This document shows, in pieces, positions 13,106 through 43,963 of a DNA stretch of 64,000 nt. The stretch comes from Rathayibacter oskolensis (lineage in GTDB: Bacteria; Actinomycetota; Actinomycetes; Actinomycetales; Microbacteriaceae), in contig NZ_FXBM01000001.1 of the NCBI RefSeq assembly GCF_900177245.1, forward strand, positions 1,240,001-1,304,000, in the 5' to 3' direction. Below the pieces are notes generated by a model. That model was not told the origin of the DNA. It ran no database searches and worked only from the letters and a program-made list of their open reading frames with translations. Numbering within the stretch: position 1 is the first letter of the stretch; every line of letters starts with the position of its first letter. The position numbers and the translations under genes were made by a program.

Positions 13106-13137
13106 GAAACACCCGGGAAACGTCGGAGGACGACGAT
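13106..13137 (+). promoter_or_regulatory. GlnR-type box and -10, pyrimidine operon
   Basis: GAAAC at 13106-13110 and again at 13117-13121, an 11-bp direct repeat, followed after 10 nt by GACGAT (13132-13137) as possible -10. The box would cover the -35 region. The repeat resembles the actinobacterial GlnR half-site pair. The leader to the nitrilase ATG would be about 140 nt. Confidence 0.5.
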
Positions 13138-13285
13138 GGACCCCTGTCCACGGAGTCGGACGGGGACCGCGATTGCCTTCGGGCCGACCGCGGACCACAG
13201 TGGGACCACGGCCCCTCGGCTCCGCATCCGCACATGACAGCACCGCGGAGACCCGCGCCGGGTCGCCCAAGGCATGGAGGTACCG

Positions 13286-14134
13286 ATGACCATCGTCCGA
13301 GCGGCAATCACGCAGACCACGTGGACCGGCGACAAGGAGTCGATGCTCGACAAGCACGAGCAGTTCGCCCGCGACGCGGCGGCGCAGGGGGCGCAGATCA
13401 TCTGCTTCCAGGAGCTGTTCTACGGCCCGTACTTCGGGATCACCGAGGACAAGAAGTACTACCGCTACGCCGAGCCCGCCGACGGACCGATCGTGCAGCG
13501 CTTCGCGGCTCTCGCGAAAGAGCTCAACCTCGTCACCATCCTCCCGATCTACGAGGAGGACATCACGGGCGTGTACTACAACACGGCCGTGGTGGTCGAC
13601 GCCGACGGCACGATCCTCGGCAAGTACCGCAAGCACCACATTCCGCACCTCGACCGCTTCTGGGAGAAGTTCTACTTCCGGCCCGGCAACCTCGGCTACC
13701 CGGTCTTCGACACCGCCGTCGGCAAGGTCGGCGTCTACATCTGCTACGACCGGCACTTCCCGGAGGGCTGGCGCGAGCTGGGCCTGAACGGTGCGCACCT
13801 GGTCTTCAACCCCAACGCGACCAAGCCCGGTCTCTCGAACCGCCTGTGGGAGGTGGAGGGGCCGTGCGCCGCCGTGGCCAACGGCTACTTCGTGCTGCAG
13901 CCCAACCGCGTGGGGCGCGAGGACAACGAGTACGGCGAGCTCGCCGTCGACTTCTACGGGACGAGCCAGGTCATCGACCCGCGCGGGAACTTCGTCGGCG
14001 AGAAGGGGTCGGGGGAGAGCGAGGAGATCGTGATCCGCGACCTCGATCTCGACATGGTGCAGCAGATGCGCGACGACTGGCAGTTCTACCGCGACCGCCG
14101 TCCCGAGTCGTACACCAGCATCCCCCAGCCCTGA
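13286..14134 (+). CDS. nitrilase-superfamily N-carbamoyl amidohydrolase, likely beta-ureidopropionase
   Basis: Hydrolyses N-carbamoyl-beta-alanine (or a related N-carbamoyl amino acid) to the amino acid, CO2 and ammonia. 282 residues. The Glu-Lys-Cys triad is visible: CFQELFYG (Glu near 45), GKYRKHHIP (Lys near 118) and YICYDRHFPE (Cys near 152). GNLGYPVF, FNPNAT and FYGTSQV resemble animal beta-ureidopropionases. I choose ATG 13286 because GGAGG (13277-13281) precedes it at 4 nt; the upstream ATG at 13274 overlaps that site. First gene of the operon with dihydropyrimidinase, LLM oxidoreductase and an ABC importer. N-carbamoylputrescine or N-carbamoyl-D-amino acid hydrolase are alternatives. 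Confidence 0.85.
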   Translation: MTIVRAAITQTTWTGDKESMLDKHEQFARDAAAQGAQIICFQELFYGPYFGITEDKKYYRYAEPADGPIVQRFAALAKELNLVTILPIYEEDITGVYYNTAVVVDADGTILGKYRKHHIPHLDRFWEKFYFRPGNLGYPVFDTAVGKVGVYICYDRHFPEGWRELGLNGAHLVFNPNATKPGLSNRLWEVEGPCAAVANGYFVLQPNRVGREDNEYGELAVDFYGTSQVIDPRGNFVGEKGSGESEEIVIRDLDLDMVQQMRDDWQFYRDRRPESYTSIPQP

Positions 14135-14163
14135 CGACGAGCCGCGAGAACCGAGGAGCATCG

Positions 14164-15603
14164 ATGAAGACCCTCATCACGAACGGCACGGTCGTCAACG
14201 CGACCGGCACCGCCACCGCCGACGTCCTGATCGACGGCGAGACGATCGCCGCGGTGCTCGCGCCCGGCTCGACCCTGCTGGGGTTCGACCTGGCCGCGAA
14301 CGTCGACCGCGTGATCGACGCGACCGGCAAGTACGTCATCCCCGGCGGGATCGACGCGCACACGCACATGGAGATGCCGTTCGGCGGCACGAACGCCTCC
14401 GACACCTTCGAGACCGGCACGCGGGCCGCGGCCTGGGGAGGCACCACCTCCATCGTCGACTTCGCCGTGCAGTACCCGGGCGAGAGCGTCGTCGAGCGCT
14501 ACGGCGCGTGGCAGGAGAAGGCCGCCGGCAACTGCGCCATCGACTACGGGTTCCACCAGATCCTGTCGGACGTGCAGGACTCGTCGCTCGTCGCGATGGA
14601 CGAGCTGATCGCGGAGGGAGTGACCAGCTTCAAGCTGTTCATGGCCTACAAGGGCGTGTTCCTCTCGGACGACGGCCAGATCCTGCGGGCGTTCCAGAAG
14701 GGCGCCGAGAACGGCGCGATGATGATGATGCACGCCGAGAACGGCGCGATCATCGACGAGCTGGTCAAGCAGTCGGTCGCCGCCGGCAGGACCTCGCCCT
14801 ACTTCCACGGGCTCACCCGGCCGTGGCAGGCCGAGGAGGAGGCGACCCACCGGGCGATCATGATCGCCGATCTCACGGGCGCTCCGCTCTACGTGGTGCA
14901 CGTCTCGGCGAAGCAGGCGGTCGAGCAGATCGCGGCGGCGCGCGACCGCGGGATGAACGTGTTCGGCGAGACCTGCCCGCAGTACCTCTACCTCTCGCTC
15001 GAGGAGCAGCTCGGCGCGTCCAGCGAGGAGTGGGGCGACTTCGAGGGCGCCAAGTGGGTCTGCTCCACTCCGCTGCGCTCGAAGGCGGAGGGGCACCAGC
15101 ACCACATGTGGCAGTCGCTGCGCACCAACGACATCCAGATGGTCTCCACCGACCACTGCCCCTTCTGCATGAAGGGCCAGAAGGACATGGGCCTCGGCGA
15201 CTTCTCGAAGATCCCGAACGGGATCGGCTCCGTCGAGCACCGCATGGATCTGATGTACCAGGGCGTCGTCTCGGGGCAGATCACGCTGCCGAGGTGGGTG
15301 GAGCTCACGTCGACGACTCCTGCGCGGATGTTCGGGATGTACGGGAAGAAGGGCGTGATCCAGCCGGGCGCCGACGGGGACGTCGTGGTCTACGACCCGA
15401 ACGGCCACACCTCGATCGGCATCGGCGAGGGGCGCACGCACCACATGAACATGGACTACTCGGCCTGGGAGGGCTACGAGATCGACGGGCACGTCGACAC
15501 GGTGATCTCGCGCGGCAAGGTCGTCGTCGACGGCGGCGACTACATCGGCGCCAAGGGCGACGGCAAGTACATCAAGCGGGGCCTCTCTCAGTATTTGATC
15601 TAG
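14164..15603 (+). CDS. hydA: dihydropyrimidinase / D-hydantoinase
   Basis: Binuclear zinc amidohydrolase opening dihydrouracil, dihydrothymine or 5-substituted hydantoins. 479 residues, normal length. Metal ligands: DAHTHMEM (His58/60 region), the carboxylated Lys in SFKLFMAYKG (near 155), MMHAENG, VHVSA and STDHCPF (Asp near 325). ATG 14164 follows GAGGAG at 7 nt, 29 nt after the nitrilase stop. The nitrilase would process its N-carbamoyl product, giving the last two steps of reductive pyrimidine breakdown. Confidence 0.94.
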   Translation: MKTLITNGTVVNATGTATADVLIDGETIAAVLAPGSTLLGFDLAANVDRVIDATGKYVIPGGIDAHTHMEMPFGGTNASDTFETGTRAAAWGGTTSIVDFAVQYPGESVVERYGAWQEKAAGNCAIDYGFHQILSDVQDSSLVAMDELIAEGVTSFKLFMAYKGVFLSDDGQILRAFQKGAENGAMMMMHAENGAIIDELVKQSVAAGRTSPYFHGLTRPWQAEEEATHRAIMIADLTGAPLYVVHVSAKQAVEQIAAARDRGMNVFGETCPQYLYLSLEEQLGASSEEWGDFEGAKWVCSTPLRSKAEGHQHHMWQSLRTNDIQMVSTDHCPFCMKGQKDMGLGDFSKIPNGIGSVEHRMDLMYQGVVSGQITLPRWVELTSTTPARMFGMYGKKGVIQPGADGDVVVYDPNGHTSIGIGEGRTHHMNMDYSAWEGYEIDGHVDTVISRGKVVVDGGDYIGAKGDGKYIKRGLSQYLI

Positions 15604-15638
15604 GCGATCCGCAAGCCCCCTGCAGCAAAGGAACCCCC

Positions 15639-16655
15639 ATGGACTTCGGAGTCGTCCTCCAGACCAACCCGCCCGCGTCGCGCACCGTCGCCCTCGCCGT
15701 CCTGGCCGAGACCTACGGCTTCGACTACGCGTGGACCTTCGACTCGCACCTGCTCTGGCAGGAGCCGTACGTCATCTACTCGCAGATCCTCGAGAAGACC
15801 CACCGGATCACCGTGGGCCCCATGGTGACCAACCCGGCCACCCGCGACTGGACGGTGATCGCCTCCCTGCACGCGACGCTGAACGAGATGTACGGCAATC
15901 GCACGGTCTGCGGGATCGGGCGGGGCGACTCCGCGGTTCGGGTGACGGGCGGCGCCCCCACGACGCTGAAGACGCTGCGGGAGTCGATCCACGTCATCCG
16001 CGAGCTCGCGAACAGCCGCTCTGTCGAGTACAACGGCTCGACCCTGCAGTTCCCGTGGAGCCGCGGCTCGTCCCTCGAGATGTGGGTCGCGGCCTACGGG
16101 CCGCTCGCCCTGAAGCTCGCCGGCGAGGTCGGCGACGGCTTCATCCTCCAGCTCGCCGACCTCGACATCGCGCGCTGGATGATCAGCACGGTCAAGGAGG
16201 CGGCCGCGAACGTCGGCCGCGACCCGGAGTCGCTGCAGTTCTGCGTCGCGGCGCCGATGTACATCGGGACCGACCGCGAGCACATGCGCGACCAGTGCCG
16301 CTGGTTCGGCGGGATGGTCGGCAACCACGTCGCCGACATCGTCGGCCGCTACGGGACCTCGGGGGCCGTGCCGCAGGCCCTGACCGACTACATCGCGGGG
16401 CGCGAGGGATACGACTACAACGAGCACGGGCGGGCCGGCAACACGCACACCGCCTTCGTGCCCGACGAGATCGTCGAGCGCTTCTGCGTGCTCGGGACCG
16501 CCGACGAGCACATCGAGAAGCTGAAGGCGCTCGCCGAGATCGGTGTCACGCAGTTCGCCGGCTACCTCCAGCACGACAACAAGGAGGAGACGCTGCGGGT
16601 GTACGGCGAGGCCGTGATCCCGGCGCTCGCCGACCACATCGTGGCGAAGGCATGA
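15639..16655 (+). CDS. LLM-class (luciferase-like) flavin/F420-dependent oxidoreductase
   Basis: 338-residue TIM-barrel protein of the bacterial luciferase/Mer superfamily. It starts MDFGVVLQTNPPASRTV, with TFDSHLLWQEP near residue 37 and WVAAYGPLALKLAGEVGDG near residue 148, typical of the F420-dependent branch related to methylenetetrahydromethanopterin reductase. AAAGGAA precedes the ATG at 6 nt. It is locked into a pyrimidine/hydantoin operon, and its stop overlaps the next gene's ATG by 4 bp. It may perform the redox step that PreTA does elsewhere, or an oxidation of a side substrate; FMN rather than F420 use cannot be excluded. Confidence 0.85.
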   Translation: MDFGVVLQTNPPASRTVALAVLAETYGFDYAWTFDSHLLWQEPYVIYSQILEKTHRITVGPMVTNPATRDWTVIASLHATLNEMYGNRTVCGIGRGDSAVRVTGGAPTTLKTLRESIHVIRELANSRSVEYNGSTLQFPWSRGSSLEMWVAAYGPLALKLAGEVGDGFILQLADLDIARWMISTVKEAAANVGRDPESLQFCVAAPMYIGTDREHMRDQCRWFGGMVGNHVADIVGRYGTSGAVPQALTDYIAGREGYDYNEHGRAGNTHTAFVPDEIVERFCVLGTADEHIEKLKALAEIGVTQFAGYLQHDNKEETLRVYGEAVIPALADHIVAKA

Positions 16656-17530
16656 TCTCGCGGACCGCGACGCGCAGCGTCCTCCTCGGCGCGGCCGGTC
16701 TGCTCCTGCTCGCTCTGATCTGGGAGGCGTACAAGGCGCTGGGTCCCGAGGCCGGTGTGGTCGTCGGCGGCGTCACCGTGCTCCCGCGCACCAGCGCCAT
16801 CGCCATGCCGCACCTCTGGGAGATCGCCGGTCGGCTCGTCGAGCCGGTGACCGGCGCTCGCGGAGCTCCCGCGCTGTGGCTCGCGGTGCTGCAGGCGAGC
16901 GCGTTCTCGCTGGGCGTCGCGGCCGTCGGCTGGGTCGTCGGAGTCGCCGTGGGGCTGCTGCTCGCGCTGCTGATGCAGCGCTTCCGGACCGCGGAGTCGG
17001 CCGTGCTGCCGTGGATCGTGCTCAGCCAGACGGTCCCGCTCATCGCGATCGCCCCGCTCGTGCGCCGCTGGGGCTCGCAGCTCGAACTCGGCGCGTTCAC
17101 CTGGGAGAACTGGATGTCGGTGGCGCTGATCGCCTCCTACCTCGCCTTCTTCCCCGTCTCGATCGGCGCGCTCCGCGGTCTCGGCTCTCCGACGACGAAC
17201 CAGGTCGAGCTGATGCGCGTCTACGGCGTCGGCTGGTGGAAGACCCTCGTGCGCCTCCGGCTGCCGGCGAGCGTGCCCTACCTGATCCCGGCGCTGCGCC
17301 TCGGCGCGGTCAGCGCGGTCGTCGGGACGGTCGTCGCCGAGGTCTCGATCGGCCTGCGCGGCGGGATCGGCCGCATGATCATCGAGTTCGCCTCCGCCGC
17401 CGGCGGCGATCCCGCCAAGCCCTGGGCCCCGATCCTCGGGGCGGTGCTGGTGGGTCTCGCGGCCGCCGGAGCCGTCGCGCTGATCGGCACCGCCCTCCGT
17501 CCGTTCCGTCGAGGGGAGCAGCCCGCATGA
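16652..17530 (+). CDS. ABC transporter permease, nitrate/taurine/pyrimidine type
   Basis: 292-residue inner-membrane permease of the SsuC/TauC/NMT1-associated class. Hydrophobic segments at ~8-25, 75-105, 118-140, 160-180, 222-240 and 265-285, with the EAA-type loop around ELMRVYGVGWWKTLVRLRLP (residues ~188-207) that contacts the ATPase. ATGA overlaps with genes on both sides show tight coupling. Together with the second permease downstream it likely forms a heterodimeric pore importing the pyrimidine or hydantoin substrate of the operon. Confidence 0.88.
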   Translation: MISRTATRSVLLGAAGLLLLALIWEAYKALGPEAGVVVGGVTVLPRTSAIAMPHLWEIAGRLVEPVTGARGAPALWLAVLQASAFSLGVAAVGWVVGVAVGLLLALLMQRFRTAESAVLPWIVLSQTVPLIAIAPLVRRWGSQLELGAFTWENWMSVALIASYLAFFPVSIGALRGLGSPTTNQVELMRVYGVGWWKTLVRLRLPASVPYLIPALRLGAVSAVVGTVVAEVSIGLRGGIGRMIIEFASAAGGDPAKPWAPILGAVLVGLAAAGAVALIGTALRPFRRGEQPA

Positions 17531-18360
17531 GCACGGCAGCCCGTACGAGCACCGCAGAACCGGCGGTCGTCGTCGACGCCGTCACGAAGACCTTCGCCAC
17601 GAAGAAGGCGGCGAGCGTCACCGCGCTGCAGGACGTCTCCCTGCAGATCGCTCCCGGCGAGTTCGTGTCGCTGATCGGACCCTCCGGGTGCGGCAAGTCG
17701 ACCCTGCTGCGCCTCATCGCCGATCTCGACGAGCCGAGCTCGGGCGCGATCACCGTCTTCGGCAAGACAGCCAGGCGGGCGCGCCTCGACCAGGAGTACG
17801 GCATCGCCTTCCAGCAGGCCGGTCTGCTGCCGTGGCGCACGATCCGGGCGAACATCGCCCTGCCGCTCGAGCTGCACGGTGTCGCCCCCGCGGCCCGGCG
17901 GACCCGGGTGGACGAGCTCCTGGCGCTGGTCGGCCTCGGCGACTTCGCCGACTCGTACCCCGATCAGCTCTCCGGAGGCATGCAGCAGCGCGTCGCCATC
18001 GCCCGCGCTCTCGCCGAGAGCCCTCGCCTGCTGCTGATGGACGAGCCCTTCGGCGCCCTCGACGAGATGACGCGCGAGCGGATGCAGACGGAGCTCCTGC
18101 GCATTCGGCGCGAGACCGGCGCCGCCGTGGTGTTCGTCACCCATTCGATCCCGGAGGCGGTGTTCCTCTCGGACCGCGTCGTCGTGATGTCGCCGCGGCC
18201 GGGTCGCATCCGGGACGTCCTGGACATCGCGCTCCCCGACTCCTCCGAGCGCGATGCCGGAGTCCGTGAGGACACGGCGTTCTTCCGCGACGTCGGAGCC
18301 GTGCGCGAGCTGCTGCACGGCGACGCGGCCGCTGTGCCGCGCGGAGTGGAGAACCGGTGA
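17527..18360 (+). CDS. ABC transporter ATP-binding protein
   Basis: 277-residue ATPase of the SsuB/TauB type powering the importer. Walker A GPSGCGKST (near residue 54), Q-loop FQQAGLLPW, signature LSGGMQQR, Walker B LLLMDEPFGALDE and the switch His in VFVTHSIPEA are all present. An ATGA overlap with the upstream permease and a GTGA overlap with the downstream one place it between two permease genes. Confidence 0.95.
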   Translation: MSTAARTSTAEPAVVVDAVTKTFATKKAASVTALQDVSLQIAPGEFVSLIGPSGCGKSTLLRLIADLDEPSSGAITVFGKTARRARLDQEYGIAFQQAGLLPWRTIRANIALPLELHGVAPAARRTRVDELLALVGLGDFADSYPDQLSGGMQQRVAIARALAESPRLLLMDEPFGALDEMTRERMQTELLRIRRETGAAVVFVTHSIPEAVFLSDRVVVMSPRPGRIRDVLDIALPDSSERDAGVREDTAFFRDVGAVRELLHGDAAAVPRGVENR

Positions 18361-19124
18361 GCACGCAGGCGCTCGCCCGGACGGTCCTCGCCCCGCTCCT
18401 GCTGGGGATCGCGGCGGTCCTGCTCTGGCAGCTGGGGGTGACGGCGCTCGACGTGAAGCCGTTCGTCCTCCCGTCGCCGGTCGCGATCGGGACGGAGTTC
18501 GGCGGCAACCTCGGCTCCGTGGTGGCCGGGAGCATCGTGACCGGGCGGAACGCACTCGTCGGACTGATCGCCGGTGCGGTGGTCGCGGTGCTCGTCGCCG
18601 GGCTCTCGGCGCTGGTGCGCGTCTTCGACGGGCTCGTCGCTCCGATCGTCGCCGCAGCGGCCGTCGTGCCCATCGTCGCTCTGGCGCCGGTGCTGTACAC
18701 GATGTTCGGCGCGAGCGTCGAGACGGCCCGGCAGCTCGTGGCCGCACTGGCGGTCTTCGTGCCCGTGTACATCAACACCCTGCGAGGTCTGCGCCAGGCG
18801 GCTCCCGTCCACCGCGACCTGATGCGCGCCTACGCTGCATCGCCCTGGCAGACGACGCGGATGATCACGCTGCCTGGCGCGGTGCCGTTCTTCTTCACGG
18901 GACTGCGCATCGCCTCCTCGCTCGCCGTCATCTCGGCGCTCGTCGCCGAGTACTTCGGCGGACCGGTCGGCGGCCTCGGCAAGTCGATCACGACCGCGGC
19001 CTCGGGGAGCGACTACGCCCTGGCCTACGCCTACGTGCTCGGCTCCGTGATCGTCGGGCTCCTGTTCTACTGCGTCACCGCCGGCCTCGAGGCCGTCGCG
19101 CTCCGCCGCAGTCGCGCGCGCTGA
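18357..19124 (+). CDS. ABC transporter permease, second subunit
   Basis: 255-residue permease of the same class as the gene at 16652 but clearly diverged. Segments at ~8-25, 55-85, 95-115, 120-140, 175-200 and 222-245; EAA-type loop APVHRDLMRAYAASPWQTTR (~148-167). GTG 18357 forms a GTGA overlap with the ATPase gene. Two unlike permeases around one ATPase suggest a heterodimeric channel. Confidence 0.87.
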   Translation: MSTQALARTVLAPLLLGIAAVLLWQLGVTALDVKPFVLPSPVAIGTEFGGNLGSVVAGSIVTGRNALVGLIAGAVVAVLVAGLSALVRVFDGLVAPIVAAAAVVPIVALAPVLYTMFGASVETARQLVAALAVFVPVYINTLRGLRQAAPVHRDLMRAYAASPWQTTRMITLPGAVPFFFTGLRIASSLAVISALVAEYFGGPVGGLGKSITTAASGSDYALAYAYVLGSVIVGLLFYCVTAGLEAVALRRSRAR

Positions 19125-19178
19125 TCCCTCCGCGCCGCTCCTCGACTTCTCCAGCCGCACCACCCGGGTCTCCCGGCC

Positions 19179-19222
19179 GCACCGCCCGATCGACAGCACC
19201 GCCCGTTCCACAGCACCGCCCG
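19179..19222 (+). repeat. three 10-bp direct repeats at 17-bp period
   Basis: GCACCGCCCG occurs at 19179-19188, 19196-19205 and 19213-19222, exactly 17 bp apart, with related 7-bp linkers ATCGACA and TTCCACA. An imperfect fourth copy (GCACCACCCG) is at 19157-19166. They fill the 139-bp gap between the second permease and the binding-protein gene and could be regulator sites or a slippage product. Confidence 0.6.
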
Positions 19223-19263
19223 AACCGGGCACATCCCTGCACCACACCGCACCAGGAGGAACA

Positions 19264-20412
19264 GTGAACAGACGCACGCGCATCGCGATGACGACCACGG
19301 CGGGATTCGCCGCCGTCGGACTCGCGCTCACCGGATGCAGCGCATCCGGCGGCGACTCCGAGGGCTCCGGCTCGTCGGGAGACCTCGCCCCCGTGACCCT
19401 GCAGCTGCAGTGGGTCGCCCAGGCCCAGTTCGCCGGCTACTACGCCGCCGTCGACCAGGGCTACTACGAGGACGAGGGCCTCGATGTGACGATCGCAGAG
19501 GGAGGCGGCGACATCGTCCCGCAGGACGTTCTCGCCTCCGGAGACGCCGACTACGCGATCTCGTGGGTGCCCAAGGTGCTCGGGTCGATCGAGCAGGGCG
19601 CGAACATCACCGACGTCGCGCAGATCTTCGAGCGCAGCGCGACCACGCAGATCTCGTTCAAGGACAAGGACATCACCTCGCCGGCGGATCTGTCGGGCAA
19701 GAAGGTCGGCAGCTGGGGCTACGGCAACGAGTGGGAGCTCTTCGCCGGCATGCAGAAGGACGGAGTCGACCTCGACGACATCTCGCTCGTCACGCAGCTC
19801 TTCGACATGAACGGCTTCCTCGCCGGTGACATCGACGCCGCGCAGGCGATGACCTACAACGAGTACGCGCAGGTGCTCGAGACGGTGAACCCGGACACCG
19901 GCGAGCTGTACCAGCCGGACGACCTCAACGTCATCAACTGGAACGACGTCGGCACCGCGATGCTCCAGGACGCGATCTGGGCCGACGCCGACAAGCTCGA
20001 GAGCGACGAGGCCTACGCCGACCAGACCGTGGCCTTCATCAAGGCGTCCATCAAGGGCTGGATCTATGCGAAGGACAACCCGGAGGAGGCGGCCGACATC
20101 GTCACCGCCGCCGGCTCCACGCTCGGCACCAGCCACCAGCTCTGGATGACCAACGAGGTCAACAAGCTGATCTGGCCCTCGACGAACGGCGTCGGCATGA
20201 TCGACGAGGCCGCATGGCAGCAGACGGTCGACATCGCCAAGGAGACGACCAACGAGACCGGCGCGACCATCATCAGCGAGGACCCGCCCGCGACCGCCTA
20301 CTCGAACGACTACGTCGAGCAGGCGCTCTCGGAGCTCGCCGACGAGGGCGTGGACACCAGCGGCGCCGACTACGAGCCGATCGAGGTGACCCTGCAGGAG
20401 GGCGGCGCCTGA
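19264..20412 (+). CDS. ABC transporter substrate-binding lipoprotein, NMT1/THI5-like
   Basis: 382-residue extracytoplasmic solute receptor. A lipoprotein signal peptide (RRTR, hydrophobic stretch, lipobox LTGC with Cys ~24) anchors it outside the membrane. The mature part has the NMT1/THI5 start LQLQWVAQAQFAGYYAA and DADYAISWVPKVL, typical of receptors for thiamine precursors, riboflavin, pyrimidines or N-formyl compounds. GTG 19264 follows AGGAGG at 5 nt. Given the operon, dihydropyrimidines, hydantoins or ureides are likely ligands; this is inference. A strong hairpin follows the gene. Confidence 0.9.
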   Translation: MNRRTRIAMTTTAGFAAVGLALTGCSASGGDSEGSGSSGDLAPVTLQLQWVAQAQFAGYYAAVDQGYYEDEGLDVTIAEGGGDIVPQDVLASGDADYAISWVPKVLGSIEQGANITDVAQIFERSATTQISFKDKDITSPADLSGKKVGSWGYGNEWELFAGMQKDGVDLDDISLVTQLFDMNGFLAGDIDAAQAMTYNEYAQVLETVNPDTGELYQPDDLNVINWNDVGTAMLQDAIWADADKLESDEAYADQTVAFIKASIKGWIYAKDNPEEAADIVTAAGSTLGTSHQLWMTNEVNKLIWPSTNGVGMIDEAAWQQTVDIAKETTNETGATIISEDPPATAYSNDYVEQALSELADEGVDTSGADYEPIEVTLQEGGA

Positions 20413-20447
20413 CGCGCCTCCGGGCGGCGGCCGGTAACCGACCTCGA

Positions 20448-22396: not shown

Positions 22397-22398
22397 CG

Positions 22399-24188: not shown

Positions 24189-24220
24189 GCCACGGCGCCG
24201 AAACACGGCGCCGGTAGCCT
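24189..24220 (+). promoter_or_regulatory. GlnR-type box and -10, formamidase operon
   Basis: GCCAC (24189-24193), six bases, then GAAAC (24200-24204): the gTnAC-n6-GaAAC form with one mismatch. Ten bases later is TAGCCT (24215-24220), a good -10. The formamidase ATG is 44 nt further on. The spacing equals that of the other boxes in the window. Confidence 0.5.
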
Positions 24221-27666: not shown

Positions 27667-27698
27667 GAAACACCGGAGAAACGTCTGTTGCGTAGGAT
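27667..27698 (+). promoter_or_regulatory. GlnR-type box and -10, allantoin operon
   Basis: GAAAC at 27667-27671 and 27678-27682 (11-bp repeat), then after 10 nt TAGGAT (27693-27698), a strong actinobacterial -10. The aminotransferase ATG is at 27753, giving a ~48-nt leader with a ribosome site. Confidence 0.6.
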
Positions 27699-32098: not shown

Positions 32099-32140
32099 CA
32101 GCCCATCGTGCACCACCCCGCCGCTCGACGAGGAGACACC

Positions 32141-36026: not shown

Positions 36027-36053
36027 TTCACACACCCGAAACGTGCCCGGAAC
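36027..36053 (+). promoter_or_regulatory. three-part GlnR-like site upstream of uricase
   Basis: TTCAC (36027-36031), GAAAC (36038-36042) and GGAAC (36049-36053) lie in one 11-bp phase, as in multi-part GlnR sites. The site is ~160 nt upstream of the uricase start, in opposite orientation to that gene, and has no good -10 at the standard distance. It is the weakest match functionally. Confidence 0.35.
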
Positions 36054-36127: not shown

Positions 36128-37483
36128 TCAGAGAGCGGGGCGGTCGAGGAGGCGGCCGACGGGCGCCTGCGTCGAGGCGGTCACCGCGACTCCGCCGACC
36201 CAGGTCGCCACGACGGCACCGCGGAGGACGCGGCCGTCGTAGGCCGACACCCTGTTCTTGTGGGCGAGCGCGTCGACGTCGACCCGCGACTCCGCATCGG
36301 GATCGAAGGCGACGAGGTCGGCGTCGGCCCCCGCGCGCAGCAGCCCCTTCTGGCCGAGCCCGGCGAAGGCGGCGGTGCCGGTCGACATCCACGCGACGAC
36401 CTGCTCGAGCGGGATGCGGCGCTCCTGCGCCCCCGTCCAGATCGCCCGGAAGCTGAGCTCGAGGCCCGAGATGCCGCCCCAGGCGAGCCCGAAGTCGCCG
36501 TCGTGCGCGAACTTCAGCTCGGCCGTGGCGGGGGAGTGGTCGGAGGCGATGATGTCGATGGCGCCGTCGAGCAGCCCCTTCCAGAGCAGCTCTCGGTTGC
36601 GCACGTCGCGGATGGGCGGGCAGCACTTGAACTCGGTGGCGCCGTCGGGGATCGATCCGGCGTCGAAGGTGAGGTAGTGCGGGCAGGTCTCCGCCGTGAT
36701 CCGCAGCCCCTCGGCCTTCGCCTCGCGCAGCAGCGGGAGGGCGTCGGCCGAGGAGAGGTGCAGGATGTGCGCCCGCCCTCCGGTCTCGCGGACCGCCTCG
36801 ATCACGTGCAGGATCGCGCTCTTCTCGGAGGCGGGCGGACGCGAGTCGACGAAGGTGCCGTAGGAGGCGCCTCCGTCGTTCGCGCTGGACTCGAGCTCGC
36901 CCGGGTCCTCGGCGTGGACGATCAGCAGACCGTCGAAGGCGGCGATCTCGCGCATCGCCTCGAACAGCTGCTCGGTGCTGAGGTGCGGGAACTCGTCGAC
37001 ACCGCTCGGCGACAGGAAGCACTTGAAGCCGAAGACGCCGGCGTCGTGCAGCTCGCGGAGGGTGCCCAGGTTCTCGGGGATCGCCCCGCCCCAGAAGCCG
37101 ACGTCGACCAGCGCCTGCGGTGCGGCGGCCGCGCGCTTCGCCTCGAGTCCCGCGACGGTGGTCGTCGGCGGGATCGAGTTCAGCGGCATGTCGATGATCG
37201 TGGTGACCCCACCGGCGGCGGCCGCGCGGGTCGCCGACGCGAAGCCCTCCCACTCCGTGCGCCCCGGCTCGTTGACGTGCACGTGGGTGTCGACCGCCCC
37301 GGGGATCAGCACCTGGCCCTGGGGCAGCACGACCTCCTCGGCCGTCTGCCACGGGGCGTCGAACTCGCCGACCGCCACGATGAGCCCCTCCGCGATCGCG
37401 ACGCTGCCCGGCTGCCAGCCGTTCTCGGTCAGCACGGCGGAGGAGCGGATCACGAGGTCGAGCGAGGGGGCGTCGGAAGGCAT
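36128..37483 (-). CDS. allB: allantoinase
   Basis: Binuclear zinc amidohydrolase converting allantoin to allantoate. 451 residues, normal length. Metal ligands: VDTHVHVNEPGRTEWEG (near residue 66), the carboxylated Lys in FGFKCFLSPSG (near 155), VHAEDPGE, HILHLSSADA and IIASDHSP. The GRTEWEG motif distinguishes allantoinases from hydantoinases. The start is fixed by a TAGGGT hexamer (37495-37490, minus) 6 nt before ATG 37483, giving a leaderless mRNA, with a GlnR-type box above. Confidence 0.95.
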   Translation of the reverse strand: MPSDAPSLDLVIRSSAVLTENGWQPGSVAIAEGLIVAVGEFDAPWQTAEEVVLPQGQVLIPGAVDTHVHVNEPGRTEWEGFASATRAAAAGGVTTIIDMPLNSIPPTTTVAGLEAKRAAAAPQALVDVGFWGGAIPENLGTLRELHDAGVFGFKCFLSPSGVDEFPHLSTEQLFEAMREIAAFDGLLIVHAEDPGELESSANDGGASYGTFVDSRPPASEKSAILHVIEAVRETGGRAHILHLSSADALPLLREAKAEGLRITAETCPHYLTFDAGSIPDGATEFKCCPPIRDVRNRELLWKGLLDGAIDIIASDHSPATAELKFAHDGDFGLAWGGISGLELSFRAIWTGAQERRIPLEQVVAWMSTGTAAFAGLGQKGLLRAGADADLVAFDPDAESRVDVDALAHKNRVSAYDGRVLRGAVVATWVGGVAVTASTQAPVGRLLDRPAL

Positions 37484-37489
37484 GGATCG

Positions 37490-37521
37490 ACCCTATACTC
37501 GGCATGTTTCCTGCGTGTGAG
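37490..37521 (-). promoter_or_regulatory. GlnR-type box and leaderless promoter, allB
   Basis: On the minus strand CTCAC (37521-37517), six bases, GAAAC (37510-37506), ten bases, then TAGGGT (37495-37490), and six bases before the allB ATG. CTCAC differs by one base from GTnAC. The same 103-bp region must also serve xdhC on the plus strand. Confidence 0.55.
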
Positions 37522-37586
37522 CGCCCGCCGGCCGCTCCAGCGCCCCCGGCAGCGACGCCTCCCGCCCGCCCCGTGAGGAGGCCGCC

Positions 37587-38681: not shown

Positions 38682-38706
38682 CCCGCTCGACCGCGTCCCT
38701 GAGTCG

Positions 38707-38738
38707 GAAACGGCCGGGAAACACGGCGCTGGCATGCT
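38707..38738 (+). promoter_or_regulatory. GlnR-type box and leaderless promoter, guanine deaminase
   Basis: GAAAC at 38707-38711 and 38718-38722 (11-bp repeat), ten bases, CATGCT (38733-38738) as -10, then six bases before ATG 38745. Both spacings equal those of allB. Confidence 0.55.
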
Positions 38739-38744
38739 CGGGGG

Positions 38745-40142
38745 ATGCAGCGTCACATCATCACCGGGGCCCACGTCGCGACCGTCGACGCGGCAGGGAC
38801 CGAGCACTCCGGCGGCCACGTCGTCGTCGACGACCACCTGATCACCGCGGTCGGCGCGGGAGCGCCTCCTGCCTGGGCGCTCGAGGGGCGGGCGCCCACG
38901 GGGCTCCCCGCGACCGAACCCGTGACGGTCGTCCGCGTCGACGGGCGCGGCCACCTGCTGACCCCGGGCCTCGTGAACACGCACCACCACCTCTACCAGT
39001 GGCTCACGCGCGGCTGGGCGCAGGACTCGATCCTCTTCGACTGGCTGGTGGCGCTGTATCCGGCCTGGTCGCGGATCGACGCCGACCTCACCCGGTCCGC
39101 CTCGCTCGGCGCCATGGGAGTGCTCGCGCGCTCCGGCTGCACCACCGTCGGCGACCACCACTACGTCTTCCCGCGCGGCTCCGGCGACATCGTCGGCGGG
39201 ATCGTCGACGCGGCCTCGACCCTGGGGCTCCGCCTCCACGCGACCCGCGGCTCGATGGACCTCGGCGAGTCGCAGGGCGGCCTGCCGCCCGACTTCGCCG
39301 TCGAGACGACCGGTGCGGCCCTGGAGGCGAGCGCCGCGGCGGTCGAGCGCTACCACGACGCCTCCTTCGAGTCGATGGTGCGGGTCGCGATCGCGCCGTG
39401 CTCGCCGTTCTCGGTGACGCCGGACCTGCTGCGGGAGTCGGCGGTCCTGGCCCGGCAGCTGGGCGTGCGACTGCACACGCACTGCTCCGAGACGATCGAG
39501 GAGGACGCGTACACCCGCGAGGCGTTCGGGATGTCGCCCACCGACTACCTCGAGTCGCTGGGCTGGCTCGGAGACGACGTCTGGATGGCGCACTGCGTGC
39601 ACCTCGACGACGACGCGATCGCCAAGTTCGCGGCCACGGGCACGGGAGTCGCGCACTGCCCGTCGTCGAACGGCCGGCTCGCGGCGGGCATCGCCCCCAT
39701 CCCGCAGCTGCTCGCGGCCGGTGCCCCGGTCGGGCTGGGCGTCGACGGCTCGGCGTCGAACGAGTCGGGGCAGCTCGGCATCGAGATCCGGGAGGCGGTG
39801 CTGATGAACCGGCTGCGCGCGGGCGCCGACAGGATGAGCGCTCGGCAGGCGCTCTCGGTGGCCACGATCGGAGGCGCCAGGGTGCTCGGACGGCAGGACG
39901 AGATCGGCTCGATCGAGGTCGGCAAGCTCGCCGACCTGGCGCTCTGGAGGGTCGACGGGATCGAGCACGCGGGCATCGCGGATCCCGTCGCCGCGCTCGC
40001 GCTCGGCTCGCAGCCGCCGCTCACGCTGCTGCTCGTGAACGGGCGGCCCGCCGTGTCGGAGGGGCGGCTCGTGAACGCCGACGAGGACGCGATCGCGCGC
40101 GAGGTCGCGAGCGCGAGCGCGGAGCTCGCGTCGCGGGTCTGA
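38745..40142 (+). CDS. 8-oxoguanine/guanine deaminase (amidohydrolase)
   Basis: 465-residue zinc amidohydrolase. Metal ligands are NTHHHLYQW (near residue 77), THCSETIEEDAYTREAFG (near 245), MAHCVHLDD and GVDGSASNESG (Asp near 330). The run HHHLYQWLTRG...LFDWLVALYP is typical of the bacterial 8-oxoguanine deaminase branch, which also relates to cytosine/guanine deaminases and makes urate or xanthine. If it acts on 8-oxoguanine the product, urate, feeds uricase directly. The leaderless start at ATG 38745 is supported by the promoter spacing. Confidence 0.87.
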   Translation: MQRHIITGAHVATVDAAGTEHSGGHVVVDDHLITAVGAGAPPAWALEGRAPTGLPATEPVTVVRVDGRGHLLTPGLVNTHHHLYQWLTRGWAQDSILFDWLVALYPAWSRIDADLTRSASLGAMGVLARSGCTTVGDHHYVFPRGSGDIVGGIVDAASTLGLRLHATRGSMDLGESQGGLPPDFAVETTGAALEASAAAVERYHDASFESMVRVAIAPCSPFSVTPDLLRESAVLARQLGVRLHTHCSETIEEDAYTREAFGMSPTDYLESLGWLGDDVWMAHCVHLDDDAIAKFAATGTGVAHCPSSNGRLAAGIAPIPQLLAAGAPVGLGVDGSASNESGQLGIEIREAVLMNRLRAGADRMSARQALSVATIGGARVLGRQDEIGSIEVGKLADLALWRVDGIEHAGIADPVAALALGSQPPLTLLLVNGRPAVSEGRLVNADEDAIAREVASASAELASRV

Positions 40143-40144
40143 CG

Positions 40145-40245: not shown

Positions 40246-40285
40246 GGCTCGCCGCCGCGCGACTCCTTCGGTCCGGTCCGCCCGC

Positions 40286-43081
40286 TCAGCCCTGCGGTGC
40301 CTGCGCCGGGACCGTGCGGATCGGCGCCGCGTCGGGGTGCAGCAGCCGCCAGATGCGGTCGCGTGAGAGAGGCAGCTCGTGCGGACGCACGCCGATGGCG
40401 GCGTGGACGGCGTTGGCCAGGGCCGGCGCGACCGGGTTGTAGGGCGCCTCGCTCATCGACTTCGCGCCGAACGGCCCGAGCTCGTCGGCCGTCTCGGCGA
40501 AGAGCACCTCGGTCGTCGGCACGTCGGCCATCTGCGGGATGTGGTAGTTGCGGAGGATCGTCGTCGTGACGGTGCCCTCGTCGTCGAGGATCATCTCCTC
40601 GTAGAGAGCCGAGCCGATCGCCTGCGCGACCCCGCCCTCGACCTGGCCGCGGCACTGGGCCGGGTTGATGACGAAGCCGGCGTCGGCCGACTGCACCGAC
40701 TGCAGGATCCGGATCTCGCCCGTCGGCACGTGCACCGCCACGCGGAACCCCTGCACGTTGAACGCGAGCGAGCGCTGAGCGCCGTCCTCGGTCCCGGTGG
40801 CCGTGATGGGGCCCCCGGCCGCACGGGCGAGGTCGCCGTACGACACCCGGGTCCCGTCCTCGGCGACGAGTCCCTCGTCGTCGGGCTCGAACTCGCCGCC
40901 GTCGTGCCCGGTGATCCGCTTGGCGAGGGAGCGGAGCTCGGCGAGCAGGCGCACCGCCGCGCTGTAGACCGCCTTCCCCGCGACCACCGTGCCCGCGCTG
41001 CCGAAGGCGCCGGTGTCGTAGCGGGCGGCGTCCGTGTCCGACTGGCGGATCCGCACCCGGTCGGCCGAGGCTCCGAACGCGCTCGCGACGAGCTGCGTGT
41101 GGACCGTGGTCGTGCCGTTGCCGAACTCCGCGGTGCCGACCCCGATCGTGAGCAGGCCCTCCGCGTCGACCGTCACCGTCGCCTCCGAGAAGTGGCCGCG
41201 CGGCGGGACCGTGGCGATCATCGCGACCGCCATGCCCTCTCCCACTCGCCAGTCGGTCCCGTCGGGCGTCGCCTCGGCGCGCCCGCGCAGGAGCGCCGCC
41301 TCGGTCAGATCGAGGCACTGGTCGAGTCCGTAGGAGGCGAAGCCGATGTCGTCGCCCTCGACGTGTGTGACGACGAGCTCGTCGCCCGGGCGGACGGCGT
41401 TGATCCGCCGCAGCTCGAACGGGTCGATGCCGAGCTTCCCGGCGAGCTCGTCCATCGCCGACTCGATGCCGAAGATCACCTGCCCCAGGCCGTAGCCGCG
41501 GAAGGCGCCGGAGGGGATGTTGTTCGTGTAGACCGCCTGGGCGTCGACGCGCTTGTTCGGGGCGGAGTAGGTGGCGACCGACTCCGAGGTGCCGTGGAAC
41601 ATGACTCCCGGGCCGTGATTGCCGTAGGCGCCGGTGTCCGAGAGGACGTCGACGCTCATCGCCGTCAGCCGTCCGTCGCGGCGGGCTCCGAGCGTCACCC
41701 CCACCCGCATCGGGTGCCGGCAGGGCGCCATCGTGAACTCGTCGCTGCGGGTGAACTCGAACTGCACCGGTCGCCCGGTGGCCAGCACCGCCAGCGCGAC
41801 GACGTCCTCGGTGAGGATCTCCTGCTTGCCGCCGAAACCGCCGCCGACCCGGGCCGTGAAGACCCGCACCGTCGAGGGGTCGCGGTCGAAGATGCGCGCG
41901 ATCTCGTCGCGGACGAGGAAGGGCACCTGGGTCGAGGTGCGCAGCACGAGCTCGTCGCCCTCGAGCCAGCCGATGGTGCCGTGCGTCTCGAGCGCGGTGT
42001 GCGCGACCCGGGACGTCGACCACCGGCCCTCGATGACCACGTCGGCCTCGGCGAGTCCGCGGGTCACGTCGCCGTACTCGCCGTGCAGCTCGGCGACGAC
42101 GTTCGACTCCGGCTTCGCGATGCGCGAGGCGATCGGATCCTTGTCGCCGTGCAGGAGGGGGGCGCCTGCTGTGCGCGCCAGCTCCGGGTCGAACACGGCG
42201 GGCAGCAGCTCGTACTCGACGTCGATCGCGCGGCAGGCGGCTTCGGCCTGGCCGACCGACTCGGCGACCACCACGGCGACGCGCTGGCCGCGGAACCGCA
42301 CGACCGTGTCGAGCATCCGGGTGTCGTCGGGGTCGTCGAGTCGCGACTCGTGGCGGGCCGTCGAGTACAGGATGTCGGGGACGTCGGCGGCGGTCAGCAC
42401 CGCGACGACGCCGGGCAGCCGCTCGGCCGCCCGCGTGTCGATGGAGAGGATCCGCGCGTGGGCGTGCGGGCTCTGCAGGACCTTCAGGTGCAGCAGGCCG
42501 GGGACGGCGACGTCGAGCGTGTAGGGCTCCCGGCCCGAGACGATGCGCCGACCGGCGGGGGCGCCGAGCGAGCGGCCGACCCGCGACTCCTCGGCGGTGG
42601 GCCGACCGGTGCGGCGCACGGGGGCGAGACCGCTCGGCGCGGGCGGGTGCTCGCAGGCGACCCGCGTCACCGCCTCGCGGATCGGGCGGTAGCCGGTGCA
42701 CCGGCAGAGGTTGCCCTTCATCAGCCGCGGGACGTCCTCGAGGCGCGCCCCCTCGATCGCGGCGGCCGTGACGACCATGCCCGCGGTGCAGAAGCCGCAC
42801 TGGAACGCGGCGGAGTCGACGAACGCCTGCTGGGCGGCGCCCGGCTCCTCCGGTGTGCCGAGGCCGGAGGCGGTGGTCACCTCGCGCCCCTCGACCCGGT
42901 GGGCGGGGTAGATGCAGGAGTGGAACGGCGTGCCGTCGACGAGCACCGCGCAGGCGCCGCAGTCGCCGGCGTCGCAGCCCTTCTTGACCTCGAAGTGCTC
43001 GTGGTCGCGCAGCAGCGTGCGCAGCACCTGACCGGGCCGCGGGGACGCGTCGACCTGCTCGCCGTTGACGGTGAATCTCAT
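40286..43081 (-). CDS. xanthine dehydrogenase, fused 2Fe-2S and molybdopterin subunit
   Basis: Hydroxylates hypoxanthine and xanthine to urate. 931 residues. Residues 1-~150 carry two [2Fe-2S] centres: the plant-type cluster KKGCDAGDCGACAVLVDG and the second in FQCGFCTAG plus NLCRCTGY. Residues ~175-931 are the Moco domain: GGGFGGKQE, SGAFRGYGLGQ and the catalytic-Glu region FGAKSMSEAPYNPVAPA. The FAD domain is a separate protein encoded just upstream with an ATGA overlap. The fusion joins what many bacteria encode as XdhC/YagT-type small and large subunits. Confidence 0.93.
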   Translation of the reverse strand: MRFTVNGEQVDASPRPGQVLRTLLRDHEHFEVKKGCDAGDCGACAVLVDGTPFHSCIYPAHRVEGREVTTASGLGTPEEPGAAQQAFVDSAAFQCGFCTAGMVVTAAAIEGARLEDVPRLMKGNLCRCTGYRPIREAVTRVACEHPPAPSGLAPVRRTGRPTAEESRVGRSLGAPAGRRIVSGREPYTLDVAVPGLLHLKVLQSPHAHARILSIDTRAAERLPGVVAVLTAADVPDILYSTARHESRLDDPDDTRMLDTVVRFRGQRVAVVVAESVGQAEAACRAIDVEYELLPAVFDPELARTAGAPLLHGDKDPIASRIAKPESNVVAELHGEYGDVTRGLAEADVVIEGRWSTSRVAHTALETHGTIGWLEGDELVLRTSTQVPFLVRDEIARIFDRDPSTVRVFTARVGGGFGGKQEILTEDVVALAVLATGRPVQFEFTRSDEFTMAPCRHPMRVGVTLGARRDGRLTAMSVDVLSDTGAYGNHGPGVMFHGTSESVATYSAPNKRVDAQAVYTNNIPSGAFRGYGLGQVIFGIESAMDELAGKLGIDPFELRRINAVRPGDELVVTHVEGDDIGFASYGLDQCLDLTEAALLRGRAEATPDGTDWRVGEGMAVAMIATVPPRGHFSEATVTVDAEGLLTIGVGTAEFGNGTTTVHTQLVASAFGASADRVRIRQSDTDAARYDTGAFGSAGTVVAGKAVYSAAVRLLAELRSLAKRITGHDGGEFEPDDEGLVAEDGTRVSYGDLARAAGGPITATGTEDGAQRSLAFNVQGFRVAVHVPTGEIRILQSVQSADAGFVINPAQCRGQVEGGVAQAIGSALYEEMILDDEGTVTTTILRNYHIPQMADVPTTEVLFAETADELGPFGAKSMSEAPYNPVAPALANAVHAAIGVRPHELPLSRDRIWRLLHPDAAPIRTVPAQAPQG

Positions 43082-43890
43082 GCGCCGCTCCCTCCGAGCT
43101 CTCGGCGGATCTGCTCGGCCAGGACGAGCACGACCCCGTGACGCCAGTCGGCGGCGCCGTGCGGATCGGTGAACCAGCTCGCGACGGCGTCGATGCCGGA
43201 GGCGAGCTCGTCGGCGGTGGGTGCCGCGGCGAACCGCAGCACCTCGGGCCGGACGGTCGCTGCGGACACGCAGAGGACGAACGCCCCGTCGACGTCGAGT
43301 CGCCCGATGACGACGGCTCCGGAGCGGCCGAGCGGCGACAGCGCGATCTTGCGGAACGCGGTCCGAGCCTCCAGGGCCCGCAGCGGGAACTCGATCGAGC
43401 GGATCACGTCGCCGTGCCCGAGGGTCGTGGTCATGTCGCCCGTCACGAGCTCGGCCACCGGGACGAGCTCGTCGGAGCCGTCGGCGCGCCAGATCAGCGC
43501 GCGGGCGTCGAGCGCGGAGGCGAGGCTGATCATCGGGCCGGCCGGGAGGGCGTTGGCGATGTTGCCGCCGACGGTCGCCGTGTTCCAGATCTTGAAGGAG
43601 CCCAGGAGCGCCGTGCAGCACTGGAAGAAGAGCGGGTGCGACGGCCTGCCGCTGTCGCGCATCCCCGCCAGTTCGGCGAGCGTGCAGGTCGCGGCGACGG
43701 AGAGCCCCTCCGGCGACTCGACGATCGGCTCCCAGCCGAACCCCTGGAGGTCGAGCAGCTCGTCGAGGTGGTCGTGCGGGAGGGAGAAGACCCAGGAGCC
43801 GCCTCCGATCACCGCGGTGCGCTCGCCCATCGCGGCCAGCTCGGCGCGCTCGCGCACGACCCGCACGCGCTGGATCGTGTTCAGGTCCAT
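43078..43890 (-). CDS. xanthine dehydrogenase FAD-binding subunit
   Basis: 270 residues of the CO-dehydrogenase/xanthine-dehydrogenase flavoprotein family. The FAD pyrophosphate loop is VIGGGSWVFS near residue 27, and the second FAD motif is TATVGGNIANALPAGPM near residue 107. It passes electrons from the 2Fe-2S centres to NAD. ATG 43890 follows GAGAGG. First gene of the two-gene xdh operon. Confidence 0.92.
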   Translation of the reverse strand: MDLNTIQRVRVVRERAELAAMGERTAVIGGGSWVFSLPHDHLDELLDLQGFGWEPIVESPEGLSVAATCTLAELAGMRDSGRPSHPLFFQCCTALLGSFKIWNTATVGGNIANALPAGPMISLASALDARALIWRADGSDELVPVAELVTGDMTTTLGHGDVIRSIEFPLRALEARTAFRKIALSPLGRSGAVVIGRLDVDGAFVLCVSAATVRPEVLRFAAAPTADELASGIDAVASWFTDPHGAADWRHGVVLVLAEQIRRELGGSGA

Positions 43891-43931
43891 GCCGCACCTC
43901 TCGACCGTGCGCGCGAACGGCGCGCCCCTCC

Positions 43932-43963
43932 AGTGAACCCCACACGTGTGACGCCCGTGTTAC
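43932..43963 (-). promoter_or_regulatory. GlnR-type box before the xdh operon
   Basis: On the minus strand GTAAC (43963-43959), six bases, GTCAC (43952-43948): two GTnAC half-sites 11 bp apart. TTCACT (43937-43932) follows after ten bases but is a poor -10. The half-sites match GTnAC better than any other box here. The 157-bp gap 43891-44047 holds nothing else that I recognise. Confidence 0.45.

What the first reader, a model, noticed from the sequence alone, without database searches (positions are those of the whole stretch)
13106..43963. A shared 11-bp half-site pair marks promoters of nitrogen-catabolic genes (possible GlnR regulon)
Seen: pairs of 5-mers of the form GAAAC or GTnAC, 11 bp apart, at 13106-13121 (pyrimidine operon), 24189-24204 (formamidase), 27667-27682 (aminotransferase/allC), 37521-37506 minus (allB), 38707-38722 (guanine deaminase) and 43963-43948 minus (xdh). 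In the first five a plausible -10 (GACGAT, TAGCCT, TAGGAT, TAGGGT, CATGCT) starts exactly 10 nt after the box; at xdh the hexamer (TTCACT) is poor. A three-part site at 36027-36053 lies near uricase. Known: the streptomycete GlnR box is gTnAC-n6-GaAAC. Inference: one OmpR-type nitrogen regulator coordinates all these genes. The box covers the -35 region, so repression or -35 replacement are both possible. An alternative sigma factor reading GAAAC is a rival idea.
Basis: partly seen in the sequence, partly recalled or inferred. Interest (0 to 1): 0.78.

Follow-up and report, generated by a model that had tools for sequence, protein, structure and literature searches.

The report
GlnR nitrogen-starvation promoters for nucleobase breakdown
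A high-GC bacterium appears to switch on its purine- and pyrimidine-breakdown genes through the known nitrogen regulator GlnR, which sits at a strictly fixed distance from the start-site box of its promoters; the system is known, the strict spacing is a useful sharpening.

Summary
The six boxes and the hexamers 10 nt after them are there as described. GAAAC-n6-GAAAC occurs 3 times, 0.01 expected. The closest relative found (G001, Microbacteriaceae bacterium VKM Ac-2854) carries the box upstream of glnA, type III glutamine synthetase, amtB, nitrogen-compound permeases, allB, guanine deaminase and the pyrimidine operon and encodes GlnR, as do all 22 genomes searched. Five of six boxes are conserved at the G001 ortholog, xdh included; formamidase and the uricase site are not. 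In Microbacteriaceae a strict -10, where present, mostly lies 10, 21 or 32 nt after a pair; glnA keeps this phase in 20 of 24 actinobacterial genomes. No TTGACA-like -35 is seen. Best reading: GlnR is a class II activator replacing the -35, as PhoB does: a new member of a known kind with a sharper geometry. The window's own genome is not held; binding and nitrogen response are untested.

The parts
13106..13121 (+). GlnR box (GAAAC-n6-GAAAC), pyrimidine-catabolic operon promoter
   Evidence: PWM 19.9 bits; conserved at the G001 ortholog (proteins 84% identical)
13132..13137 (+). candidate -10 GACGAT, 10 nt after box
13286..20412 (+). operon: carbon-nitrogen hydrolase (AguB/beta-ureidopropionase-like), amidohydrolase (hydantoinase-like), luciferase-like monooxygenase, ABC permease, ATPase, permease, SBP
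24189..24204 (+). GlnR box (GCCAC-n6-GAAAC), formamidase promoter
   Evidence: PWM 14.2 bits; not conserved in G001; none of 12 loci with a relative scores 9 bits
24215..24220 (+). candidate -10 TAGCCT
   Evidence: TAGCCT also present upstream of the G001 ortholog
24265..25356 (+). FmdA/AmdA family acetamidase/formamidase
27667..27682 (+). GlnR box (GAAAC-n6-GAAAC), aminotransferase/allC operon promoter
   Evidence: PWM 20.6 bits; conserved in G001 and, with n10 TAnnnT, in Frigoribacterium, two Agromyces and two Curtobacterium loci
27693..27698 (+). candidate -10 TAGGAT
27753..31110 (+). aminotransferase (BhcA-like, below that model's cut-off), M20 amidohydrolase (allC-like), RpiR-family regulator
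36027..36053 (+). three half-sites TTCAC-n6-GAAAC-n6-GGAAC upstream of uricase, opposite orientation; role doubtful
   Evidence: PWM 14.6 and 16.0 bits; not conserved in G001
36128..37483 (-). allantoinase allB
   Evidence: TIGR03178 above cut-off
37490..37495 (-). candidate -10 TAGGGT
   Evidence: identical in G001
37506..37521 (-). GlnR box (CTCAC-n6-GAAAC), allB promoter
   Evidence: box and n10 -10 kept in G001 and two Agromyces loci
38707..38722 (+). GlnR box (GAAAC-n6-GAAAC), guanine deaminase promoter
   Evidence: conserved in G001 as GTAACn6GAAAC
38733..38738 (+). candidate -10 CATGCT
   Evidence: identical in G001
38745..40142 (+). guanine / 8-oxoguanine deaminase
   Evidence: PRK08203 above cut-off
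40286..43890 (-). xanthine dehydrogenase-type subunits
43932..43937 (-). candidate -10 TTCACT (weak)
   Evidence: identical in G001
43948..43963 (-). GlnR box (GTAAC-n6-GTCAC), xdh promoter
   Evidence: PWM only 9.3 but conserved in G001 as GAAAC-n6-GTCAC with the same hexamer

Best explanation
The boxes are binding sites of the actinobacterial OmpR-type nitrogen regulator GlnR. Two GlnR DNA-binding domains sit head-to-tail on two half-sites one 11-bp step apart (GWMAC-n6-GAAAC). The promoter-proximal half-site ends exactly 10 nt before the -10, so the pair covers about -38 to -23 and takes the place of a -35. When nitrogen is short, GlnR would recruit the housekeeping RNA polymerase to these -35-less promoters and switch on purine and reductive pyrimidine catabolism, allantoin breakdown and formamide hydrolysis. 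Shown by computation: the sites, their enrichment, intergenic placement, conservation, phase to the -10, absence of a -35, the same box at glnA and amtB, and GlnR in relatives. Inferred: that GlnR binds here, that it activates, and that nitrogen is the signal.
For: Window sites and chance level. Same motif genome-wide in G001 with nitrogen genes downstream. GlnR in G001, best PDB matches 8hih/8hig/8hml, with 4o1h named GlnR in the listing, and the recognition-helix region identical to 8hih. GlnR in 22 of 22 genomes. Motif 169 against 17 reversed controls in 13 relatives. Phase to the -10. glnA promoters: strict TAnnnT on the lattice in 20 of 24. Ortholog conservation. No -35. Literature: PMC10704036 sections 4 and 5 (read); PMC4222082 passages, growth on guanine and uracil GlnR-dependent in M. 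smegmatis.
Against: The window's own genome is not held, so its GlnR is not seen. The formamidase box is absent at the G001 ortholog and no formamidase relative in 12 loci scores 9 bits; the uricase site is not conserved, and 2 of 17 uricase loci score 9 bits. Of 32 genes examined downstream of G001 sites about 11 are clearly nitrogen genes; others (subtilase, CTP synthase, glycosidase, DUF222) are not obviously so. Only 16 of 56 (G001) and 21 of 59 (six other genomes) intergenic pairs have a strict TAnnnT on the lattice. At amtB, a classic target, no strict TAnnnT falls at 10, 21 or 32 in any of 28 upstream regions. Arthrobacter-type genomes have GlnR but no enrichment of this box (83 against 81), and Streptomyces and Arthrobacter loci outside glnA show no lattice peak (few pairs).
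Confidence: 0.9

Rival explanations
1. GlnR or a related OmpR-type regulator represses these promoters by covering the -35 region.
For: The box covers about -38 to -23. GlnR represses gdhA and, by binding its start site, ald (PMC4140684, title, abstract and passages). MtrA and PhoP are reported to cross-regulate GlnR targets in Streptomyces (PMC10704036 section headings; PMC4415409 passage).
Against: The promoters have no -35 to cover: 36 promoters with TAnnnT at n10/n11 match TTGACA in at most 3 of 6 positions, mean 1.56, against 2.18 in 377 control hexamers (partly forced by the box letters). The same geometry is at glnA, which GlnR activates.
Confidence: 0.06
2. An alternative (ECF-type) sigma factor reads GAAAC as its -35.
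For: GAAAC resembles the GGAAC-type -35 of ECF sigma factors (recalled) and lies at a fixed distance from the -10. Intergenic GAAAC without a partner still shows a small excess at n10, 5 of 166.
Against: The gap from GAAAC to the -10 is 10 nt, or 21/32, not the 16-18 of an ECF promoter (recalled). The motif is two or more half-sites at 11-bp steps. The -10 is the ordinary TAnnnT.
Confidence: 0.02
3. A local pathway regulator (the PucR or RpiR protein encoded in the window) binds the box.
For: Both regulators lie inside the cluster.
Against: In G001 the same box is upstream of glnA, GSIII, amtB and other genes at many other places in the genome; a direct repeat at 11 bp is an OmpR-family pattern.
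Confidence: 0.02

Closest known systems
GlnR regulon of Streptomyces coelicolor / S. venezuelae (gTnAc-n6-GaAAc, a-b-a-b)
   Same: Same 5+6+5 box and core targets such as glnA and amtB (PMC10704036 section 5; PMC3087709 passages); GlnR protein conserved; same -10 phase at glnA
   Different: Window promoters have two half-sites rather than four, first half often GAAAC; purine/pyrimidine catabolic genes are the targets. The review section gives no box to -10 spacing rule
GlnR regulon of Mycobacterium smegmatis
   Same: ChIP-seq targets include cytosine/purine/allantoin permeases, xanthine/uracil permeases and an allantoicase (PMC3662644 passages); guanine and uracil growth GlnR-dependent, formamidase in the transcriptome table (PMC4222082 passages)
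   Different: Different family; here xdh, guanine deaminase, allB, aminotransferase/allC and the pyrimidine operon each have their own box
PhoB / PHO box (class II OmpR-family activator)
   Same: 11-nt direct repeats bound head-to-tail (PMC4415409 passages), overlapping the -35 site in a model where activator and sigma share it (PMC3348028 passages)
   Different: Different recognition sequence and signal; GlnR is an orphan with an atypical receiver (PMC10704036 section 4)

Membership tests
Actinobacterial GlnR regulon | 16-bp box, two 5-mers with 6-bp gap, b-site GaAAc | tested here: met
   b-site GAAAC in 5 of 6, GTCAC at xdh
Actinobacterial GlnR regulon | GlnR homologue encoded in the same genome | tested here: inconclusive
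   own genome not held; present in G001 and in 22 of 22 genomes
Actinobacterial GlnR regulon | same box upstream of core nitrogen genes (glnA, amtB) in the lineage | tested here: met
   G001; 24 glnA and 28 amtB upstream regions looked at
Actinobacterial GlnR regulon | conservation of the box at orthologous promoters | tested here: met
   5 of 6 boxes conserved in G001; formamidase not
Actinobacterial GlnR regulon | direct binding of GlnR | not testable with these tools
   needs gel shift or ChIP
Actinobacterial GlnR regulon | response to nitrogen supply | not testable with these tools
   needs expression data
GlnR-RNA polymerase complex as solved (four half-sites) | four half-sites in a row | tested here: not met
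   window promoters have two recognisable half-sites; four-part arrays are seen at glnA of relatives
PhoB-like class II activation (-35 replacement) | tandem repeats at fixed distance from -10, overlapping -35 | tested here: met
PhoB-like class II activation (-35 replacement) | no consensus -35 | tested here: met
ECF sigma promoter | -35-like motif 16-18 nt before the -10 (recalled) | tested here: not met
   gap is 10, 21 or 32

The most novel reading that the evidence does not exclude
GlnR-dependent promoters obey one quantised geometry: half-sites lie on an 11-bp lattice whose last position ends exactly 10 nt before the -10 (offset 10+11k), from two-half-site catabolic promoters in Microbacteriaceae to the four-half-site glnA promoter across actinobacteria. 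This would mean GlnR acts as a growing head-to-tail array of fixed register on RNA polymerase, that a single dimer can suffice, and that direct targets and their start sites can be predicted from sequence alone.
Probability: 0.5. Interest if true: 0.55.

Novelty: new member of a known kind. Interest (0 to 1): 0.42.

Why it matters
It extends the GlnR nitrogen regulon, by sequence evidence, to purine and pyrimidine catabolism in Microbacteriaceae. Among the papers listed by two searches (20 of 305, 10 of 62) no title names a GlnR regulon study in that family, although PMC4222082 notes that Clavibacter has both GlnR and AmtR (passage). The 10+11k phase gives a strict filter that separates likely GlnR sites from chance matches and predicts start sites. 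It also makes a mechanistic question testable: whether two GlnR protomers are enough, since the solved complex described in PMC10704036 has four.

Tried and rejected
Rejected: sigma factor reading GAAAC (wrong gap), local PucR/RpiR control (same box at glnA and amtB elsewhere), repression by -35 overlap (no -35; same geometry at glnA). The uricase three-part site was set aside: not conserved in G001, opposite orientation, no -10. Formamidase: no box at the G001 ortholog.

Led nowhere: own-genome searches (not held). Phase test outside Microbacteriaceae: Streptomyces AllB loci plus 18 regions of one genome gave 12 strict pairs with one TAnnnT, at 39; looser pairs gave 52 with single matches at 9, 21, 22 and 39. 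Arthrobacter-type loci gave 9 strict pairs (one match, at 44) and 100 looser pairs with scattered matches. So no lattice is shown there beyond glnA; the glnA/amtB comparison was used instead. Of 28 amtB upstream regions 3 gave any strict offset (54, 19, 19), none at 10, 21 or 32 (54 is 10+44). By eye many amtB regions have a weaker hexamer (CAGACT, CAATCT) about n10 after a further half-site; I did not count these. At glnA the 4 of 24 without a strict lattice match are G020, G021 (upstream cut short), G022 and G025; by eye the last two have GAAAT-n10-TATGGT/TAAGGT.

Literature: no title or abstract start listed by searches speaks of a fixed GlnR-box to -10 spacing; these are capped lists from an open-licence library, so this is no proof of novelty. 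The primary papers on S. coelicolor GlnR sites (Tiffert 2008) and on the GlnR-RNA polymerase complex (Shi 2023) were not read, only the review's account.

Rows dropped before counts: the matrix used the 35 of 50 intergenic G001 sites with a downstream gene within 320 bp, 141 pairs were reduced to 118 by similarity for the shuffle test; the window was left out. The set of six other genomes (five genera; on) holds the sites listed for G002, G003, G005, G009, G010 and 6 of 16 for G011; G004, G006-G008 and G012-G014 were not fetched. Of 35 G001 sites with a near downstream gene, 30 genes were scanned. In one search, of 20 pairs with TAnnnT at offset 21, 5 have a GAAAC third half-site, and 10 of the other 15 come from AllB loci L010-L078, 8 of them Curtobacterium, so they are not independent. 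Overlapping pairs in one array share one -10 and are counted at several offsets. The coding controls hold at least one real promoter miscalled as coding (L209, the Agromyces aminotransferase).
Full report
What was claimed and what is there. All coordinates and letters are right. Two first half-sites (GCCAC at 24189, CTCAC at 37521-) do not fit the stated form, and the xdh box has GTCAC as its second half. The window is 72% G+C and codes for purine and pyrimidine catabolism: carbon-nitrogen hydrolase, hydantoinase-like amidohydrolase and ABC transporter; formamidase and amidase; aminotransferase, M20 hydrolase and RpiR regulator; HIUase, OHCU decarboxylase and PucR regulator; uricase, allantoinase, an XdhC-like factor, guanine deaminase and xanthine dehydrogenase, then molybdenum-cofactor genes. 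Gene calls are from a codon-usage script of my own.

Is it more than chance? GAAACn6GAAAC occurs 3 times in the window, 0.01 expected, 0 of 100 shuffles reach 3. A matrix trained only on another genome's sites gives 7 window hits of at least 12 bits, all intergenic; shuffled intergenic DNA gives 0.3 and the shuffled whole window 1.5. Upstream of the 60 called gene starts, four pairs match 10 of 10 half-site letters and belong to the aminotransferase, guanine deaminase, pyrimidine operon and xdh; five match 9 of 10, of which allB and formamidase alone have TAnnnT at +10.

An AllB search gave as closest Microbacteriaceae bacterium VKM Ac-2854 (78% identity, handle G001). There GNNACn6GAAAC occurs 83 times, the reversed pattern 11 times. 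Fifty of 83 are intergenic: 12 of 13 with GAAAC first, 12 of 12 with GTAAC first, 6 of 10 with GTCAC first, 20 of 48 others. Of 32 downstream genes examined (30, plus allB and guanine deaminase by orthology), about 11 are clearly nitrogen genes: glnA, type III glutamine synthetase, ammonium transporter, a urea-carboxylase-type permease and an asparagine-permease-like protein (both below their model's cut-off), the MSMEG_0572 nitrogen-starvation family, a cytosine/purine permease, the carbon-nitrogen hydrolase (84% identical to the window's) and aminotransferase orthologs, allB and guanine deaminase. Others, such as a subtilase, CTP synthase, a glycosidase and a DUF222 protein, are not.

The regulator. 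Of 16 Trans_reg_C matches in G001, one (L159) matches GlnR structures: best 8hih chain O at E 1e-70, then 8hig and 8hml, with 4o1h named 'Transcription regulator GlnR' in the listing (that 8hih is the GlnR-RNA polymerase complex is recalled). The recognition-helix stretch is identical to 8hih in the printed alignment. A protein search found one full-length strong match in each of 22 genomes, 55-99% identity (one more handle, L078, was not held). The box GWMACn6GAAAC beats its reversed control 169 to 17 in 13 genomes (12 Microbacteriaceae by name, and Demequina) and 125 to 36 in five other actinomycetes, but 83 to 81 in three Arthrobacter-type genomes.

Conservation at orthologous promoters. 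In G001 the box and hexamer are kept at allB (TAGGGT identical), guanine deaminase (CATGCT identical) and xdh (GAAACn6GTCAC, TTCACT identical); the box is kept at the pyrimidine operon and the aminotransferase. So the weak xdh site is real by conservation. The formamidase box is not present in G001, nor is the uricase three-part site. Among the 80 AllB loci: the aminotransferase is found in 27, of which 16 score at least 9 bits (one of them a coordinate artefact), with TAnnnT at n10 in Frigoribacterium, two Agromyces and two Curtobacterium loci; allB has 22 of 80 at 9 bits or more, and the 8 at 14 bits or more are all Microbacteriaceae, two of them on the opposite strand; uricase 2 of 17, allC 2 of 20, formamidase 0 of 12.

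A phase to the -10. In G001, without any selection for a -10, columns 26 (T), 27 (A) and 31 (T) of the aligned sites stand out, which is TAnnnT 10 nt after the box. In six other genomes of five genera strict TAnnnT lies at offset 10 in 10 of 14 matches within 28 nt, among 50 intergenic sites. Over 141 intergenic pairs the offset histogram from 0 to 64 is 30 at 10, 20 at 21, 10 at 32, 4 at 11 and at most 2 elsewhere; after removal of similar promoters (118) it is 22, 12 and 6, with a shuffle mean of 0.74 at offset 10 and at most 6 at any offset in 2000 shuffles. By set: G001 16 of 29 matches on 10/21/32 against a null mean of 1.13, the others 21 of 30 against 1.01, null maximum 6 in both. Controls: 53 coding pairs give one match at 10; single intergenic GAAAC gives 5 of 166 at 10. 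Limits: most pairs (40 of 56, 38 of 59) have no strict TAnnnT on the lattice, arrays are counted at several offsets, and many offset-21 cases are homologous Curtobacterium promoters.

The phase holds at a proven GlnR target. Upstream of glnA strict TAnnnT falls at 10, 21 or 32 after a pair in 20 of 24 genomes. In 7 of the 12 Microbacteriaceae the array reads GTAAC-n6-GAAAC-n6-GnnAC-n6-GAAAC-n10-TAnnnT; in three Arthrobacter-type genomes, Nocardiopsis and Streptomyces the last half-site reads GAAAT. At amtB, by eye, the first two and the fourth lattice positions are filled in many genomes, but the hexamer is weaker and no strict TAnnnT falls at 10, 21 or 32 in 28 regions. Outside glnA no lattice could be shown in Streptomyces or Arthrobacter loci.

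How it works. Half-sites at 11-bp steps are what an OmpR-family protein bound head-to-tail needs. The pair covers about -38 to -23, and no TTGACA-like -35 is found at 16-18 nt. E. coli PhoB does the same with its PHO box over the -35 site (PMC3348028 passages; PMC4415409 passages). GlnR activates glnA (PMC4140684 passage). The best reading is class II activation by GlnR with the box in place of the -35. Binding, activation and nitrogen response are inferred.

What is known. The GlnR box and its targets in Streptomyces and mycobacteria are established (PMC10704036 sections 4-5 read; PMC3087709 passages; PMC3662644 passages). GlnR-dependent growth on guanine and uracil, with formamidase in the transcriptome table, is reported for M. 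smegmatis (PMC4222082 passages). The finding is therefore a new member of a known kind. The sharpened 10+11k phase was not seen in the passages and sections read here, but key primary papers were not available.

Noticed in passing
window 30241-31110 and 32994-34568: Two pathway regulators (RpiR family and PucR family) lie inside the purine cluster, so dual control with GlnR is possible.
   Followed up: partly
window 31538-32317 (-) against 32129-32644 (+): A MobA-like nucleotidyltransferase and OHCU decarboxylase appear to overlap on opposite strands by up to about 190 nt; the decarboxylase start was chosen by me for the scan, so the overlap is uncertain.
   Followed up: no
L167 1441-2178 and L173 1486-2637 (G001): Two further OmpR-type DNA-binding proteins in the relative: one whose PDB matches cover only its DNA-binding half and are best to the GlnR chains, and one long protein with only a C-terminal domain of this type (uroporphyrinogen-synthase fusion, NnaR-like, by memory).
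   Followed up: partly
G015-G017 (Arthrobacter, Paenarthrobacter, Pseudarthrobacter): GlnR is present but the GWMACn6GAAAC box is not enriched over its reversed control (83 against 81), unlike Microbacteriaceae; glnA keeps the four-part array.
   Followed up: partly
L094, L102, L087 (G001): Boxes also lie upstream of a subtilase, CTP synthase and a glycosidase: possible new GlnR targets or chance.
   Followed up: no
window 37484-37586: The XdhC-like gene 37587 has no box of its own here, although its G001 ortholog has one (GTAGCn6GAAAC-n10-TAGCGT).
   Followed up: partly
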